Below the pieces are notes generated by a model that saw only the letters and a program-made list of their open reading frames with translations, did not search any database and was not told the DNA's origin. From the NCBI GenBank assembly GCA_013359255.1, contig JABWCF010000022.1:1-37209 (forward strand): a stretch of DNA of 37,209 nt. The letters are read 5' to 3'. Positions 1 through 6,865 of this stretch are shown piece by piece (within the stretch, counting starts at the first letter, position 1; the number at the start of each line of letters is the position of its first letter). Source of the DNA: Flavobacteriales bacterium (lineage in GTDB: Bacteria; Bacteroidota; Bacteroidia; Flavobacteriales_E; Vicingaceae). The translations under genes were made by a program, and so were the position numbers.

Positions 1-417
1 TACAATAGTAGAAATTTAAAAGGCTTTGTAGCCTTGTTTAACAGAAAGCCTAAATCGGAGAACATCTACAATAGTAGAAATTTAAAAGGCTTTGTAGCCA
101 TTACCAGCCAGCTGTGCGAGTTCCTATATCTACAATAGTAGAAATTTAAAAGGCTTTGTAGCCAATTCAGAAATAAATAATAGTGCCTTATATCTACAAT
201 AGTAGAAATTTAAAAGGCTTTGTAGCCAACGTATTTAAAAAAATGTACCATTCCATCTACAATAGTAGAAATTTAAAAGGCTTTGTAGCCACACGTTGAA
301 ATAAAGCCGGAAGCGTAATCTACAATAGTAGAAATTTAAAAGGCTTTGTAGCCAGATAAATTATTAAGTGGGGGTATTGTTATCTACAATAGTAGAAATT
401 TAAAAGGCTTTGTAGCC
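1..417 (-). CRISPR. Type V-A CRISPR array, seven repeats visible, truncated by window edge
   Basis: Seven copies of a 36-nt repeat lie at 1-33 (three bases cut off by the window edge), 64-99, 128-163, 192-227, 255-290, 318-353 and 382-417. All visible bases of the copies are identical. Six complete spacers of 27-30 nt separate them. Read on the minus strand, the repeat ends in AATTTCTACTATTGTAGAT, the classic Cas12a crRNA handle (stem TCTAC/GTAGA with a four-base loop), so the array is transcribed leftwards like the cas genes. The leader-proximal, presumably newest, spacer is 354-381. The lack of a degenerate repeat at the left edge suggests the array continues beyond position 1. By eye I saw no spacer match elsewhere in the window; targets are unknown. 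Confidence 0.99.
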
Positions 418-428
418 TCTAATGGCAA

Positions 429-488: not shown

Positions 489-499
489 CCCCCCCCCCC
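489..499. repeat. 11-base C homopolymer (G on transcribed strand) in CRISPR leader
   Basis: Eleven consecutive C residues sit in otherwise AT-rich DNA between cas2 and the array. Read in the cas direction it is an 11-base G tract, upstream of the predicted array promoter and downstream of cas2. The leader (418-603) contains no credible gene. Such tracts are prone to slippage, in replication or in sequencing. Confidence 0.85.
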
Positions 500-603: not shown

Positions 604-882
604 TTACAATATTATTAAATCATTGTCTAACAACGCTGCACTTCCGTACCTAACCGTATCGTTATGATTAGCTGTAAATACATAAATGCTATCGCTGGGT
701 TCGAACTTTTTACTAAACTTCATTTTAATGGCATTTTGTACAATTTGCAGTACCCGTTTCGAATTTTGAATTTCATAAACAGAAAATTGCACTCTAACTC
801 CATATTTTTCTAGAAACTTAGAAAACTGCGTACGGGTTTTATCTTTCGAAATATCGTATGTTACTATAATTACATTACTCAT
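604..882 (-). CDS. cas2: CRISPR-associated endoribonuclease-like protein Cas2
   Basis: Cas2 is the small partner that bridges two Cas1 dimers in the spacer-integration complex. The 92-residue product has normal Cas2 length and the ferredoxin-like start MSNVIIVTYDIS, whose aspartate at residue 10 is the conserved Cas2 acidic residue. It is followed by the helix with Lys/Arg-rich YGVRVQFSVYEI typical of the family. The ATG at 882 overlaps the end of cas1 by 8 nt, so the two are probably translationally coupled. It is the last gene of the cas operon before the leader and array. The role in adaptation is inferred from family and position; its nuclease activity is usually dispensable in this family. 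Confidence 0.97.
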   Translation of the reverse strand: MSNVIIVTYDISKDKTRTQFSKFLEKYGVRVQFSVYEIQNSKRVLQIVQNAIKMKFSKKFEPSDSIYVFTANHNDTVRYGSAALLDNDLIIL

Positions 883-1846
883 AACTAAAATTTGGATAAG
901 AGGTTACACTTTTTTTACCCATAAAACAGCGATAATATTGTTGTATATAGTTGTATATTTCCGATTTATGGTTGATGATGGCTTCAAAAAAAACTTTTAC
1001 GTACACTTTTTTAAATTCTGATTTAAGGTAATATGCATTTTTCTTTTTTTCGAAATCGCTAGGCTTAAAAGTCCCATATTTTAACGATTTTCTAATTTGG
1101 TGTTCAATAATACATCGAAACGGTTCCATTAAATCGCAAACCAAGCTTTTTCGTCTAAACCAAAGTTGGTGGTAAACACCCATGTAGGGGTCGAAACCAA
1201 AAAGTCGGGTCATACATTCCACATAATTAAACAACATGGTGTAACCTATGTCTAAAGTAGCATTCAAGGTGTCTTGTTTTACTCTGGGCAAACGTTGTTG
1301 CCAATCGGCAAATTCAAAATAAGCATTAAAAAATAATTTTGCCGATTTTCCTTCAATTCCCATCAATTCTCGGTAATCGGTAACCGTATCAATTAAACTA
1401 AAACTATTGTTAATCGAAATTTTAGCTTTTTCAACCGACACACTTTTTTCTCTTGTTTTTACCAACAATTGTAACTGATTACTTATTTTATTTTTAATCA
1501 ACACCTTTGCTACCGGCAGTATTCCTTTGTTTTCTTCAAACTGTTTTTTTCTTAGTAGAAAATTAGCCTCTGCCATGTTTCCGTAATAAAAAACAGGTCT
1601 AAAATTGGGCTTCATCACTACTATTGGTATGCCGTGTTTGTTGCAATGTTCTATTAAGGCTGTGGTAAGCGTAGTGTGCCCAACAATCATTAAACTTAAA
1701 ATTTTTGGGAAAGGTAATTTGGTAATTGCTTTTTTAGTTTCGGTGTCTTCGAGCATTAATCTGCCACTTGAAACTTTTAGGTTTTGGTGTTCTGTGCCAT
1801 TAATCACAAACAGGCTTCTGTTTTCAATATCTTTATGCGTAAACAT
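875..1846 (-). CDS. cas1: CRISPR-associated integrase Cas1 (type V-A)
   Basis: Cas1 is the metal-dependent integrase that inserts new spacers at the leader end of the array. The 323-residue protein has an N-terminal beta-sandwich region (about 1-95) and an all-alpha catalytic domain. The metal-binding triad is visible as Glu165 (GIEGKSAK), His226 (GVYHQLW) and Glu241 (CDLMEPFR), so the enzyme looks intact. Its start overlaps the end of cas4 by 14 nt and its end overlaps the start of cas2 by 8 nt, giving a compact cas4-cas1-cas2 adaptation cassette as usual in type V-A loci. The length is typical, and no frameshift or missing residue is seen. Confidence 0.98.
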   Translation of the reverse strand: MFTHKDIENRSLFVINGTEHQNLKVSSGRLMLEDTETKKAITKLPFPKILSLMIVGHTTLTTALIEHCNKHGIPIVVMKPNFRPVFYYGNMAEANFLLRKKQFEENKGILPVAKVLIKNKISNQLQLLVKTREKSVSVEKAKISINNSFSLIDTVTDYRELMGIEGKSAKLFFNAYFEFADWQQRLPRVKQDTLNATLDIGYTMLFNYVECMTRLFGFDPYMGVYHQLWFRRKSLVCDLMEPFRCIIEHQIRKSLKYGTFKPSDFEKKKNAYYLKSEFKKVYVKVFFEAIINHKSEIYNYIQQYYRCFMGKKSVTSYPNFSYE

Positions 1847-2405
1847 GATCTATGTTGGTTTTGTCGCAAAGTGCTGCATAAATGCAATGTTGGCACTTTA
1901 CGGAGTTAACATTAATAGTTGATTCAAAATCAAATCGGGCAATTTTTCTGATGTGATTTCGTAATTCTTCAAATTCTTTTTGTTGAGGAATTTTTGCCTG
2001 ATGTGTTTTTTTATCCCGAATCGAATAAAAGGCAATTTCATCCACTTCAAAACCCATTTCGGTAAGTGCAAAATATTGAGCCCACAGTTGGTAATAATAA
2101 CCTTGATAAATGGTAGTAATGGAATATTTACTTTCCACTAGTCTTTTTTTATTCAAATACAAGGTATCTATTTTGCCGTAAACTCCCAATTTGTTAGAAA
2201 TTACATAAATGCCTTTTAAAATGGCTTTTGATGGGCTGCTTGGTTCTTCAAACGTATCAATAGCATCATGTTCTGACTTGCCTTTTTGTTGGGGTGCTGC
2301 ACTGTATAAATCATCGCTATTGTTATCAAAAACCTGATGTAAATAGATGGAGTAAGGGCAAAACACAAAATCGTTTAAATACGTAATGGGTAAAAACGTT
2401 TCCAT
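1833..2405 (-). CDS. cas4: CRISPR-associated exonuclease Cas4
   Basis: Cas4 is a RecB-type nuclease with an iron-sulphur cluster that trims prespacers and helps select those next to a PAM. The 190-residue product shows the complete signature: Cys16 (FCPYS), His46, the nuclease residues Asp80 (GKIDTL) and Glu91-x-Lys93 (VESK), Gln106 in the following helix, and the C-terminal cluster Cys171, Cys174, Cys180 (KCQHC..LC). The four cysteines would ligate a 4Fe-4S cluster. The ATG at 2405 follows a 12-bp inverted repeat and the wrecked rhuM remnant, so its distance from cas12a (380 nt) is larger than the spacing inside the rest of the operon. It may be transcribed from cas12a or from a promoter in that gap. 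Confidence 0.97.
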   Translation of the reverse strand: METFLPITYLNDFVFCPYSIYLHQVFDNNSDDLYSAAPQQKGKSEHDAIDTFEEPSSPSKAILKGIYVISNKLGVYGKIDTLYLNKKRLVESKYSITTIYQGYYYQLWAQYFALTEMGFEVDEIAFYSIRDKKTHQAKIPQQKEFEELRNHIRKIARFDFESTINVNSVKCQHCIYAALCDKTNIDHVYA

Positions 2406-2785: not shown

Positions 2786-5700
2786 TTACTCATTTGCTAC
2801 AACCATTTCTGTTTTAACAGTAATCTTTTTTGTATTACTTTCCTTAGCTTTTTTAGAGGCAAATGATTTTACCTCATTACCCCATTTTTGTTTATCAGAA
2901 ACCCATAAATCCCATTCTTTATCAGAAATAAACAAATCTAAATCATTTCCCTTTTCAAATTTATGCTTACCGTCATTCACCCATTGTTTAATATGCTCAT
3001 ACATTACAATTCCTTTTCGGGCTATGTTGTAAGCTCCATTTGCATCGGCATCTTTTGGAAGTTTAGGATTTTCTTGTTTTTCAAATAAACGAGAATCAAA
3101 ATGCACCCCCTGTTCGTTCCTCACAGGAGATTGAAGAAAGTTATCGTCTTGTCCTTTGGAGGTATCGCCAGAATTTCTGATTTGCTGAATAATGTCAATA
3201 ATAAAACGAAGTGTTTCCCAAGCAGTATGTTCATTGATTTTTGGTAACTCTTTTCCTTCCTGCAATTGTTGCTTTAGTGATTTCGATTTATCAAATTTTT
3301 CAAAAAGTTTATCCAACAAACTTTTCACATCAATAGATTCAACAATGTATTCATTTTTATCCTTTGCTCTTTTTGCACGATAGCGTTCTAAAGTTTTACC
3401 TTTTTCTCCTGACCTTAAAATCCATGTTTTTTGTGTGCTTTCATCTTTATATTCAAAAAAATAATCTCCGTGATTATCAACTCCTATGTTATCAAAAGTT
3501 TTAAAAATTTCAGTTTTAATTACATCTTCACTTCCCTTTTTTAAATAAATTGTTTTTCTCCATCCGGTAACAGGGTCGGTTATCGATGTGTAATTGGCAC
3601 GAGTATATAACATTACGCCTACTTGTTTTCTATTTTCAATATCTCCATAATTACTTACGGGTGGAGTTAATTGTAGTGCTTTAGCTACAGAACTTATTTC
3701 CCCGTCATTAGCATTTTTATCTACCAAATAATTGAGTTTTTTAGCCAATGCTAATTCAAATTTTTGATACACACTTTGCTCAAATTTTTGCCTGCTACGT
3801 TTGAATCCTGTGTTCAAATCTTCTAAAACAATGAAAGTTGGTTTTAAGTTCCCTTTCTCATCTTTCATTTTTTGAATAATTTCGTGAACAACCAATGAAA
3901 TATAACCATCTTTTAGGTTAGCTATATTTCCCTTTTGCTGCCAGTTTTCCTGTTTTTCTTTTCGCTTTTTAGCTGCATCGTTAATTTCTTGCAAATAGTT
4001 TTTCTTATTAATGATATCAAAGTGTCCTTGTCCATTTTCTTTTATGTTACCGTTTGCATCGAGCAATGAATAATATATCAAATGTTTTTCGCCACGGTCG
4101 ATTCCTAGAAATTGAATGTCGTTTACTTTAGTAAAATTATCGTTTACAACATCATTGACCCTTGCTTGTTTAGGTGATGGTGCTTGATAATTAATTTTTA
4201 TAGGAACATGAAAGAAGTACTTATTATTTATGAATCGTTTGTTTTTTACAATATCATGTTTAAAAATGCTTTCTTTCTTCCCATCACTTCTTCTATATAT
4301 TTTTTCATTCGCTGGATGAATAGCTTTGTCTTCTGCTTTTAATTCAACTTTTTCTCTGAAAAACAATTCTCCGCCCCCACAAAGCTGAATAGAACTGTCA
4401 TCATCAAAAAGATGCTTCCAATATTTTGTTTGAAGATTGGGGGTTCCTGTACTTTTATTACTAAAATCTTTACTATATATTTCAAATAAGTAGATTTCCT
4501 CATCAGCAACATTTTTCAAAATAACATTCCAATTCACAGGTCTGTAATTACACTCATAACATTTCGAAAGTGCATCCTGAATATCTTTATCGAAAGCTTT
4601 TTTATTATCATATTTCTTTTCCGAAACTTCTTTAAGTAAAGGATATTTTTTTACATAATTATTTTTTATAAACCCTTGTAATTTCTGTATTGCATCATCA
4701 TCTTGTTGAATATCTCCATACTTAATACCATAATCTCTAATAAATCCTTTACCTGCTAATGTTTGAAACTTCAATGTTTTTAATATTAACCGACCTATAT
4801 TCGAATCTGAAGCTTTATAAATAGGATTTTCCTCTTTCTCTGTATCAAAAACAGACCTACTTATTAAAACTCCTAAATAATACCTATCATTATTTTTCAA
4901 CAGAACTGTCCCTTTATTTTTTTCTTGTCCATCACTCCAACCCCCAGCTAAATTCGGGTTTTCAAAATTCAATTTTAACTTATTCTTTTTAGCATCATCT
5001 TGTGGTTTTTTAGTGAGATAATTTCGAACTAAATCATACCAATCCAACCAATCTGCATCATTGGCTCTAAGAATCGAATCTAACAAAACTGTTAATTCAG
5101 GATTAATATTGTTCCCTTTTACCTTTACTGCTTTTACTTCAAAATACTTGATGAGCCATAAAATATATTTTGCAGTGTCTAACCATTCTTTTATGGCTAA
5201 AATATTGTCTTCGTGTTTATAATCGGTTATTTTCAAAACAGCAACTGATTTACTAAAAAAATCAGTTGCTAAATCTTGTAAATCCGAACAAATTAAATTG
5301 ATAACATTTTCACTTGGGGACAGTTTTTCATCTATTACAGAACTCCTGTCACTCAAAATTGATTCTTTAAAAAATGATTTACTCCAACTCTCTTCTGATG
5401 TTTGATTTAAAACCGAGAACAATATAGATAATTCAACAGCATCGTTTATTTTTAATTGTTCTTCTCTTTTTTTATCAAACGAGGCAACAGAACGAAGTAA
5501 CTCTTTTTGCTCTTTTTCTTTGCTCTCCAACACTTTTTGAATACGGTCTTTTATTTCGTGCCAATTAGCAAAATATTTATTTGAAACCTTATCAACTGCT
5601 GATTTCGACCAATAAACACCATTCCAATCGGTATTGTTTTTCAGCCAATCAATTAAACTGTAAATTGTTACATCACTGTCATTGGTTGATTTTTGAAAAT

Positions 5701-6865
5701 ACTTTTTACCTGCTTTGCTAATTAATTCAATAGTTTCTTGCAAATTCAAAGGAGCATCCGAATTTTCATTCGCTTTTTGTTGTTCTTCTTTAGTATCAAA
5801 TTTCAATTCAAAAAATAAAGCCTTTTTTTCTCCACAACCAATTTGTTTGAATAATGTTTTAAATGGTTGTAAATTTTTAAAAGATTTGTCTTCTGTTTTT
5901 TTCGCTTGATTATAGAGGTTTATAAGTAAGTTATAATGCCCAATAACTTTGTTATATCCCTCAATTTCCGATTGGGCAAGGCAAGTAGAAAACCTTTCTA
6001 TGTTAAACCAATCCTCAACAATTGCTTTTGCGTCAATCATTGTATTGGTTTCCGCATCTTTTATTTTTGTTGTTCTATTGTTGTTTTTTAAAAATTCTAA
6101 TGCTCCTAAATATTCTTCTTTTCTTGAGCCATAAAATTGGACAGCATTATCACAGAACTTAGGTAAATTCTCATGTACAATTCTTGTTGCAACAGCAGTT
6201 GCTTTTTCTTCTTTGGTTACATAGTAATTCTCTCTATTTTGATTAAATCCTGAAAAATAGGTAAAGAAACTACTCAACACGACTAAATGTCCAGTCCTTT
6301 TAATTTCTTTTTTTCCTTTAGTGTTAGTTATTTCTTTCTCATCAATAAACTCTTTTATCTCAGATTCAGTAACCAACAGTTTAATATTTTTTTCAATGTA
6401 TTTTAAAATCCCTGATTGTGTAAGATACGCTACTCCGACATGTTTACCTTTATTCTTCTTGAATATAGGTATTCCTTTACCTTCCCCTACACTCTCCGCA
6501 AAATTGTTAGCAGTTTTCTCAAATGCTTTACCTAATTCATTTCTTATGGTGTTTTCAAAAGTATCTACTTTTTTCTCTTTACCTTTTTTATACTCCTCGA
6601 AGTACAGAGCAAAGTCAATCTTCTTTGCTTCCTCAGAACTTAAACTTTTATTAATAATATCTTCATGGATTTTATCTAAAACGGGTTTGAGTGCCACATA
6701 AGCTTCTTTGATTTTTCTATCCTGTTCAATAATTTTTTTAAAAATTTCATTTGTATCTCCTTGACTGAGTTGCTTACCGTTTTTTCCCACCGGCTTTAAT
6801 TCAAATCTTAATGTTTTAGAAAGTTGGTAAAGATTTGTGAATTTTTGAAGTGTTGTATTATTCAT
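2786..6865 (-). CDS. cas12a: CRISPR-associated RNA-guided endonuclease Cas12a (Cpf1)
   Basis: Cas12a processes its own crRNA and cuts target DNA with one RuvC site. The 1359-residue protein begins with the family signature YQLSKTLRFELKPVG. Catalytic residues are intact: Asp923 (GIDRGEKH), Glu1015 (VLEDLNTGF), Asp1274 (DADANGAY), with the Nuc-domain Arg1230 (IRNS). The bridge-helix region follows RuvC-I. The crRNA-processing residues in the WED domain are recognisable: His850 (AIHPANEK) and Lys874 (DIVKNKRF). The PAM-contact segment LNFENPNLAGGW (632-643) is conserved, but Gln647 stands where AsCas12a, LbCas12a and FnCas12a have Lys. After the usual family end (about 1325) a basic tail of roughly 34 residues follows. 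At about 1300 residues the usual family size is slightly exceeded. It is the first gene of the cas operon, reads towards the array, and diverges from 6995. I could not identify its promoter in the 129-bp gap. Confidence 0.99.
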   Translation of the reverse strand: MNNTTLQKFTNLYQLSKTLRFELKPVGKNGKQLSQGDTNEIFKKIIEQDRKIKEAYVALKPVLDKIHEDIINKSLSSEEAKKIDFALYFEEYKKGKEKKVDTFENTIRNELGKAFEKTANNFAESVGEGKGIPIFKKNKGKHVGVAYLTQSGILKYIEKNIKLLVTESEIKEFIDEKEITNTKGKKEIKRTGHLVVLSSFFTYFSGFNQNRENYYVTKEEKATAVATRIVHENLPKFCDNAVQFYGSRKEEYLGALEFLKNNNRTTKIKDAETNTMIDAKAIVEDWFNIERFSTCLAQSEIEGYNKVIGHYNLLINLYNQAKKTEDKSFKNLQPFKTLFKQIGCGEKKALFFELKFDTKEEQQKANENSDAPLNLQETIELISKAGKKYFQKSTNDSDVTIYSLIDWLKNNTDWNGVYWSKSAVDKVSNKYFANWHEIKDRIQKVLESKEKEQKELLRSVASFDKKREEQLKINDAVELSILFSVLNQTSEESWSKSFFKESILSDRSSVIDEKLSPSENVINLICSDLQDLATDFFSKSVAVLKITDYKHEDNILAIKEWLDTAKYILWLIKYFEVKAVKVKGNNINPELTVLLDSILRANDADWLDWYDLVRNYLTKKPQDDAKKNKLKLNFENPNLAGGWSDGQEKNKGTVLLKNNDRYYLGVLISRSVFDTEKEENPIYKASDSNIGRLILKTLKFQTLAGKGFIRDYGIKYGDIQQDDDAIQKLQGFIKNNYVKKYPLLKEVSEKKYDNKKAFDKDIQDALSKCYECNYRPVNWNVILKNVADEEIYLFEIYSKDFSNKSTGTPNLQTKYWKHLFDDDSSIQLCGGGELFFREKVELKAEDKAIHPANEKIYRRSDGKKESIFKHDIVKNKRFINNKYFFHVPIKINYQAPSPKQARVNDVVNDNFTKVNDIQFLGIDRGEKHLIYYSLLDANGNIKENGQGHFDIINKKNYLQEINDAAKKRKEKQENWQQKGNIANLKDGYISLVVHEIIQKMKDEKGNLKPTFIVLEDLNTGFKRSRQKFEQSVYQKFELALAKKLNYLVDKNANDGEISSVAKALQLTPPVSNYGDIENRKQVGVMLYTRANYTSITDPVTGWRKTIYLKKGSEDVIKTEIFKTFDNIGVDNHGDYFFEYKDESTQKTWILRSGEKGKTLERYRAKRAKDKNEYIVESIDVKSLLDKLFEKFDKSKSLKQQLQEGKELPKINEHTAWETLRFIIDIIQQIRNSGDTSKGQDDNFLQSPVRNEQGVHFDSRLFEKQENPKLPKDADANGAYNIARKGIVMYEHIKQWVNDGKHKFEKGNDLDLFISDKEWDLWVSDKQKWGNEVKSFASKKAKESNTKKITVKTEMVVANE

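What the first reader, a model, noticed from the sequence alone, without database searches (positions are those of the whole stretch)
4840..4960. Cas12a has Gln at the PAM-contact position that is Lys in As/Lb/FnCas12a
Aligned by eye from the conserved LA.GW segment, Gln647 lines up with AsCas12a Lys548, LbCas12a Lys538 and FnCas12a Lys613, which contact the PAM duplex. Neighbouring positions corresponding to As Ser542 and Asn552 are Gly641 and Lys651. The canonical KMLPK motif region (As Lys607 equivalent) is also replaced by TLAGKGF near residues 702-708. The PAM preference may therefore differ from TTTV.
Basis: partly seen in the sequence, partly recalled or inferred. Interest (0 to 1): 0.5.

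Follow-up and report, generated by a model that had tools for sequence, protein, structure and literature searches.

The report
Cas12a with a divergent PAM-reading module
This bacterium's Cas12a lacks one of the two lysines that well-studied Cas12a proteins use to read the short DNA tag beside their target, and comparison with relatives suggests that the whole tag-reading part is swapped between otherwise similar enzymes; which tag this one reads is still unknown.

Summary
The residue call is right: Q647 (codon 4927-4925, minus strand) aligns gaplessly from the conserved GW to As K548, Lb K538 and Fn K613. G641 and K651 match As S542 and N552, but Gly is also wild-type Lb (G532). 'TLAGKGF' does stand in the KMLPK region, yet its Lys (K706) may itself be the K607 counterpart, so loss of K607 is unproven. 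The REC1 Thr (As T167) is kept as T202.

Non-Lys at 548 is not peculiar to this protein: it holds in all 8 members of its clade and in 14 of 41 modules examined.

The larger result: the stretch from just before GW to WED-III (hairpin plus PI domain) behaves as an exchangeable cassette. Of 37 pairs with at least 60% identity downstream, 26 are under 40% identical in PI; core and cassette trees reject each other. Residue 548 lies just inside the upstream edge.

The PAM stays unknown: no convincing protospacer was found. A non-TTTV PAM is plausible, not shown. By sequence the locus is otherwise a complete type V-A system.

The parts
2786..6865 (-). cas12a, 1359 aa
   Evidence: TIGR04330 541.6 bits against a cut-off of 300; phmmer to 26 distinct PDB Cas12a sequences, E from 2.5e-110 to 1.3e-80
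4925..4927 (-). codon of Gln647, aligned to As K548 / Lb K538 / Fn K613
4943..4945 (-). codon of Gly641, aligned to As S542 and Lb G532
4913..4915 (-). codon of Lys651, aligned to As N552 / Lb Y542 / Fn N617; Lys here in 3 of 41 modules
4502..4963 (-). PAM-reading cassette, residues about 635-788: WED-II GW hairpin plus PI domain; edges are approximate, taken from where swapped relatives lose and regain identity
4742..4762 (-). TLAGKGF, residues 702-708, in the KMLPK region; K706 (4748-4750) is a possible K607 counterpart
6260..6262 (-). codon of Thr202, counterpart of As T167 in REC1
1833..2405 (-). cas4 (type V, TIGR04328)
   Evidence: 214.6 bits, cut-off 70
875..1846 (-). cas1 (type V, TIGR04329)
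   Evidence: 402.1 bits, cut-off 300
604..882 (-). cas2 (TIGR01573)
   Evidence: 43.7 bits, cut-off 24.5
1..418 (-). CRISPR array, 7 repeats and 6 spacers, cut by the contig end at 1; the repeat reads ...AATTTCTACTATTGTAGAT on the minus strand
   Evidence: a further 5 repeats and 4 spacers at the end of another contig of the same genome

Best explanation
This is, by sequence, a complete type V-A system whose Cas12a carries a divergent PAM-reading cassette. In Cas12a the stretch from just before the WED-II 'GW' hairpin through the PI domain evolves as a unit that is exchanged between enzymes, and residue 548 (Q647 here) lies just inside its upstream edge. Among 41 modules the window's cassette type (Gly at 542, Gln or Glu at 548, Lys at 552, TLAGKGF-like in place of KMLPKVF) was seen in three: the window, L009 and L010. 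Shown: the residues, the clade-wide absence of Lys at 548, and the conflict between core and cassette trees. Inferred: recombination as the cause of that conflict, and that Q647 with K651, perhaps helped by K706 and the kept T202, reads the PAM in a way that differs at least in detail from K548/K607. Most likely outcome: a PAM still rich in T or pyrimidine, but not exactly TTTV.
For: Clade of 8 with 100/100 support and none with Lys at 548. Cassette exchange: L169 and L171 are 83% and 86% identical on the two sides but 53% in the hairpin and 33% in PI; L172 and L170 64% and 79% against 31% and 25%; L183 and L170 24% and 38% in the flanks but 56% in PI. Nucleotide identity of L169/L171 is 83% in the 100 codons upstream, 52% in the cassette, 81% downstream. 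26 of 37 close pairs have PI under 40%. Six AU tests reject groups of one tree on the other, p from 2.45e-5 to 1e-98. The pair L166/L165, which shares a PI type, shows no dip there. 548 differs with PI type between near relatives: L169 K and L171 N, L172 K and L170 F, L164 K and L167 Q. Literature passages on K548/K607 and on a conserved lysine and GWxxxK motif in active Cas12a. The hairpin SDGxEKNKG of window, L009 and L010 is invariant except at 647.
Against: No PAM was determined. Seven of 37 proteins keep K548 without the K607 motif, so the two are not locked together, and on independent pairs the association is not significant (10 pairs, same way 4-5, opposite 0-1, sign test p 0.06 to 0.38). 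The groups for the AU tests were named after the trees were seen. No donor of the window's own cassette was found; that this one was swapped in is inferred from relatives. Gln can contact adenine in the major groove (recalled), so T at that PAM position may be unchanged. Structure models were poor.
Confidence: 0.6

Rival explanations
1. The PAM is unchanged, T-rich and TTTV-like. Gln647 reads the same adenine that Lys548 reads, K706 takes the place of K607, T202 and shape readout do the rest; the sequence change is turnover without a change of PAM.
For: T202 is kept; K706 can be placed on K607 with one gap (by hand; hhalign is unsure); repeat, cas1, cas2 and cas4 are of the ordinary V-A kind. 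The majority of PAMs identified in PMC7757703 were T-rich.
Against: Close relatives L009 and L010 have Glu, not Gln, at this place in an otherwise invariant hairpin; Lb K538S or K538A lost most cellular activity unless Arg was added nearby.
Confidence: 0.3
2. Charge relocation: loss of Lys at 548 is offset by Lys at 552, a natural counterpart of the engineered RVR and RAR enzymes, shifting the PAM towards TATV-like sequences. (A special case of the best explanation.)
For: Lys at 552 occurs in 3 of 41 modules, just the three with the TLAGKGF-like cassette. RVR reads TATV and Lb RAR/RSR read TTTa, TATa and TACa, as printed in the passages seen.
Against: The window has Gly, not Arg, at 542; other non-Lys cassettes (L167, L171, L037) have no Lys at 552; no PAM data.
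Confidence: 0.15
3. The PI differences are fast divergence under phage pressure, not recombination.
For: REC1 also has strong dips near residues 100-200 in some pairs, so fast local divergence does occur in this protein.
Against: The same PI type recurs on distant cores: L183, L170, L174 and L037 join at 100/100 in the cassette tree, while the core tree rejects them as a group, p-AU 1e-49.
Confidence: 0.1

Closest known systems
AsCas12a, LbCas12a, FnCas12a
   Same: Family, domain order and repeat handle by sequence; RuvC motifs; REC1 Thr; Gly at the 542 position as in Lb
   Different: Gln at 548, Lys at 552, no KMLPK string, shorter hairpin-PI module (151 residues against 168-199); 21-35% identity in the structure alignments
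Cas12a families mined from metagenomes (PMC7757703; parts 1 and 2 of 4 read)
   Same: Divergent V-A effectors with ordinary repeats; that paper reports PAMs from T-rich to YYN
   Different: [quoted passage not shown] the window has GWSDGQ. Whether its untested families include this clade was not checked
AsCas12a RVR and LbCas12a RAR/RSR (engineered; passages seen)
   Same: Loss of Lys at 548 with a basic residue nearby (552 in RVR)
   Different: The window has Gly at 542 and Gln at 548, and is natural
Cas9 PAM-domain variants in Neisseria (Edraki et al., as told in passages of PMC7822910)
   Same: Orthologs alike everywhere except in the PAM-interacting domain
   Different: Another enzyme family; there the change of PAM was tested

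Membership tests
Cas12a (type V-A effector) | Score over the curated cut-off of the family model | tested here: met
   TIGR04330 541.6 bits, cut-off 300
Cas12a (type V-A effector) | RuvC catalytic motifs present | tested here: met
   IDRGEKH at 922, VLEDLN at 1013, ADANGAY at 1273; the roles of the residues are recalled. No activity test
Cas12a (type V-A effector) | Array with the UCUAC-N-GUAGA handle, read on the strand of cas12a | tested here: met
   AATTTCTACTATTGTAGAT exact in 10 of 13 matches found in this genome, those 10 in the two array pieces
Cas12a (type V-A effector) | cas4 and cas1 of type V, and cas2, alongside | tested here: met
As/Lb/Fn-type PAM lysines (GWxxxK and KMLPK) | Lys at the 548 position | tested here: not met
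   Gln647
As/Lb/Fn-type PAM lysines (GWxxxK and KMLPK) | Lys at the 607 position | tested here: inconclusive
   K706 possible, gap placement ambiguous
Cas12a with a TTTV PAM | Protospacers flanked by TTTV | tested here: inconclusive
   No convincing protospacer
Cas12a2 | RNA-triggered collateral nuclease of its own effector family (recalled) | not tested
   Considered only; the full-length match to the Cas12a model and to Cas12a structures made it unlikely

The most novel reading that the evidence does not exclude
Natural Cas12a enzymes change their PAM by whole-cassette exchange of the WED-II hairpin plus PI domain, and the window's clade holds cassettes that read the PAM without Lys at 548, with a lysine at 552 instead in the window's trio, giving PAMs outside TTTV.
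Probability: 0.35. Interest if true: 0.7.

Novelty: new variant of a known kind. Interest (0 to 1): 0.5.

Why it matters
If PAM reading in Cas12a travels as a cassette, PAM preference cannot be predicted from overall relatedness, and the natural set of cassettes becomes a ready source of Cas12a with other PAMs. It would also be a way for hosts to answer phages that lose PAM sites (inference). [quoted passage not shown] natural cassette exchange would be one direct, testable reason for this in Cas12a.

Tried and rejected
Protospacers. Ten spacers of this genome (6 in the window, 4 on contig C33) and 81 of five relatives' arrays were read. Viral contigs were scanned 8 times, one pattern each: 5 of the 10 own spacers (20, 17, 17, 15 and 16 bases) and 3 of 27 L010 spacers (with wobble positions open). 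Searches gave nothing; in the other five no hit continued convincingly: best 19 of 30, 24 of 31, 21 of 28, 25 of 30. One search found 95 stretches; I take them for a common coding motif, which I did not check. All 6 window spacers were searched in phages: two without match, four with weak matches, E 0.05 to 0.6, in phages of unrelated hosts. I read the flanks of three: Citrobacter phage CF1, 25 of 30 with ATTT upstream; a Mammaliicoccus phage, 22 of 28 with AAAT; an Alteromonas phage, 22 of 28 with CCTT. None is trusted. One spacer was searched in plasmids (none) and in 46 genomes of the order (only the array itself). The 91 spacers were also compared with the loci then held: chance level only.

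Structure. Models of residues 560-940 (mean pLDDT 49.9) and 1-1195 (47.4) were poor. VIA-align matched the first to Cas12a chains at Z up to 8.5, rmsd mostly 8-10; model residue 77 meeting As 537 fits the gapless register but proves little. Both models have a strand near 690-698 and a helix within 700-712, over TLAGKGF. K607 could not be placed by structure.

Association of 548 with the 607 motif on independent pairs was not significant. The 607 motif was scored by a coarse pattern: L178 (MLRKV) and L017 (MLPHA) count as lost.

Rows dropped. Of 50 ORF segments, 10 fragments were left out of the 43-row alignment, which includes 3 references; L177, in two pieces, fell out of the 41 modules; the core tree has 37 rows. 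The core set keeps 19 window columns of the hairpin region (636-640 and 652-665).

Literature. Nine paper searches; one search found nothing. No listing showed natural exchange of the Cas12a PI domain. The library lacks most subscription papers and supplements were closed, so this is no proof of absence.

Full report
Observation. The window holds a type V-A locus on the minus strand: cas12a 2786-6865, cas4, cas1, cas2 and an array at the contig start. An array with the same repeat stands at the end of contig C33, where the last repeat is degenerate; the join between the two pieces was not seen. Lb itself has Gly at the S542 position.

Is it unusual? I collected Cas12a by the TIGR04330 model in 395 genomes of the phylum (2 with matches), 294 of the class of G314 (3), 379 of the phylum of L012's genome (13), 60 relatives (4) and 392 of the phylum of L011's genome (24), plus 4 loci from genome contigs. 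Some genomes recur between these draws, the window's own among them. After merging duplicates and dropping fragments, 41 hairpin-PI modules (38 from loci, window included, and 3 references) could be read: Lys at 548 in 27, other residues in 14 (Tyr 3, Phe 2, His 2, Glu 2, Gln 2, Asn, Pro and Arg 1 each). The second Gln is L167, on a different core. So non-Lys is a minority state, with at least 7 changes on the core tree.

The clade. That the window's organism is a Bacteroidota is my inference from type IX secretion domains. None of the eight has Lys at 548: window Q, L010 E, L009 E, L183 Y, L011 F, L181 H, L012 H, L027 P. L011, L012 and L181 have an extra residue, so their letter depends on the gap, but neither placement seen gives Lys. 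In the window's own family, three other genomes carry Cas12a of the ordinary kind (1443 to 1533 bits), which lie elsewhere on the tree. The patchy hosts suggest transfer of the clade; this was not tested further.

The cassette. Comparing near relatives shows a sharp fall in identity a few residues before GW and recovery at the WED-III strand YLFQIYNKDF. L169 and L171 are 83% and 86% identical on the two sides but 33% in PI; L172 and L170 64%, 79% and 25%. In both pairs the deepest 60-residue dip in the protein starts 49-68 residues after GW, while L166 and L165, which share a PI type, show none there. Of 666 pairs among 37 proteins, 37 have at least 60% identity after the cassette; 26 of these have under 40% in PI, and the values fall at 43 and below or at 52 and above. 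The reverse also holds: L183, of the window clade, has a PI 53-56% identical to those of L174 and L170, whose parts after the cassette are 38-39% identical to it. A cassette tree joins L183, L174, L170 and L037 at 100/100, and L167 with L171 at 100/99; the core tree rejects these groups and the cassette tree rejects core groups, six AU tests in all, with the warning that the groups were named afterwards. Several of these genes lie on contigs of 0.25 to 2.7 Mb (L167, L169, L174, L183), which makes assembly chimeras an unlikely cause for them.

What this says about Q647. Residue 548 is four residues after GW, inside the cassette. Between near relatives the PI type and residue 548 differ together: K and N (L169, L171), K and F (L172, L170), K and Q (L164, L167). 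Of 37 core-tree proteins 16 have both K548 and a K607-type motif, 13 neither, 7 only K548 and 1 only the motif (L180, with Arg at 548); the phylogeny-aware test is too small to be significant. The hairpin of window, L009 and L010 is SDG(Q/E)EKNKG, identical but for 647, and among 41 modules these three alone have Lys at 552.

Mechanism. Passages read: As K548 contacts the PAM from the major groove and K607 from the minor groove; Lb K538S or K538A cut activity sharply unless Arg is set nearby, and the resulting RAR and RSR enzymes also accept TATa and TACa (PMC7817983); RVR reads TATV and K607 bonds at position -2 (PMC6546366); Lys548, Met604 and Lys607 lie at the PAM (PMC11754666). [quoted passage not shown] From this I infer a changed or loosened readout at one PAM position, with Q647 and K651 on the major-groove side, K706 possibly on the minor-groove side and T202 kept. 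That Gln pairs well with adenine is recalled, and is why an unchanged T at that position remains a serious rival.

PAM. It could not be inferred; Tried and rejected lists each search and near-match.

Verdict. A correct residue observation that is ordinary within its clade, leading to a broader and testable pattern of PAM-cassette exchange in Cas12a. In the nine paper searches made I saw no report of such natural exchange in Cas12a; Cas9 has a known parallel (PMC7822910, passages).

Noticed in passing
window 490-499: A run of about ten C in the AT-rich stretch between cas2 and the first repeat (leader side); could be a variable homopolymer or a sequencing artefact.
   Followed up: no
window 1-34 and L013 9098-9385 (contig C33 end): The array appears split between two contigs; the distal end on C33 has a degenerate repeat, and spacers may be missing between the two pieces.
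   Followed up: partly
L010 array, spacers 15 and 22: Two spacers begin with the same ACCCCGAT and then differ first at every third base, as if taken at the same site of homologous genes.
   Followed up: partly
window 2888-2941: A 27-base tandem near-duplication (74%) inside the 3' part of cas12a.
   Followed up: no
REC1 of window, L009 and L010, residues about 100-200: A second region of very low identity between members of the same sub-clade (down to 13-18% in 60-residue windows).
   Followed up: no
L011, L012, L181 and L027: Other cassette types inside the window clade (KSTT and KTIYG types) without a KMLPK-like motif.
   Followed up: partly
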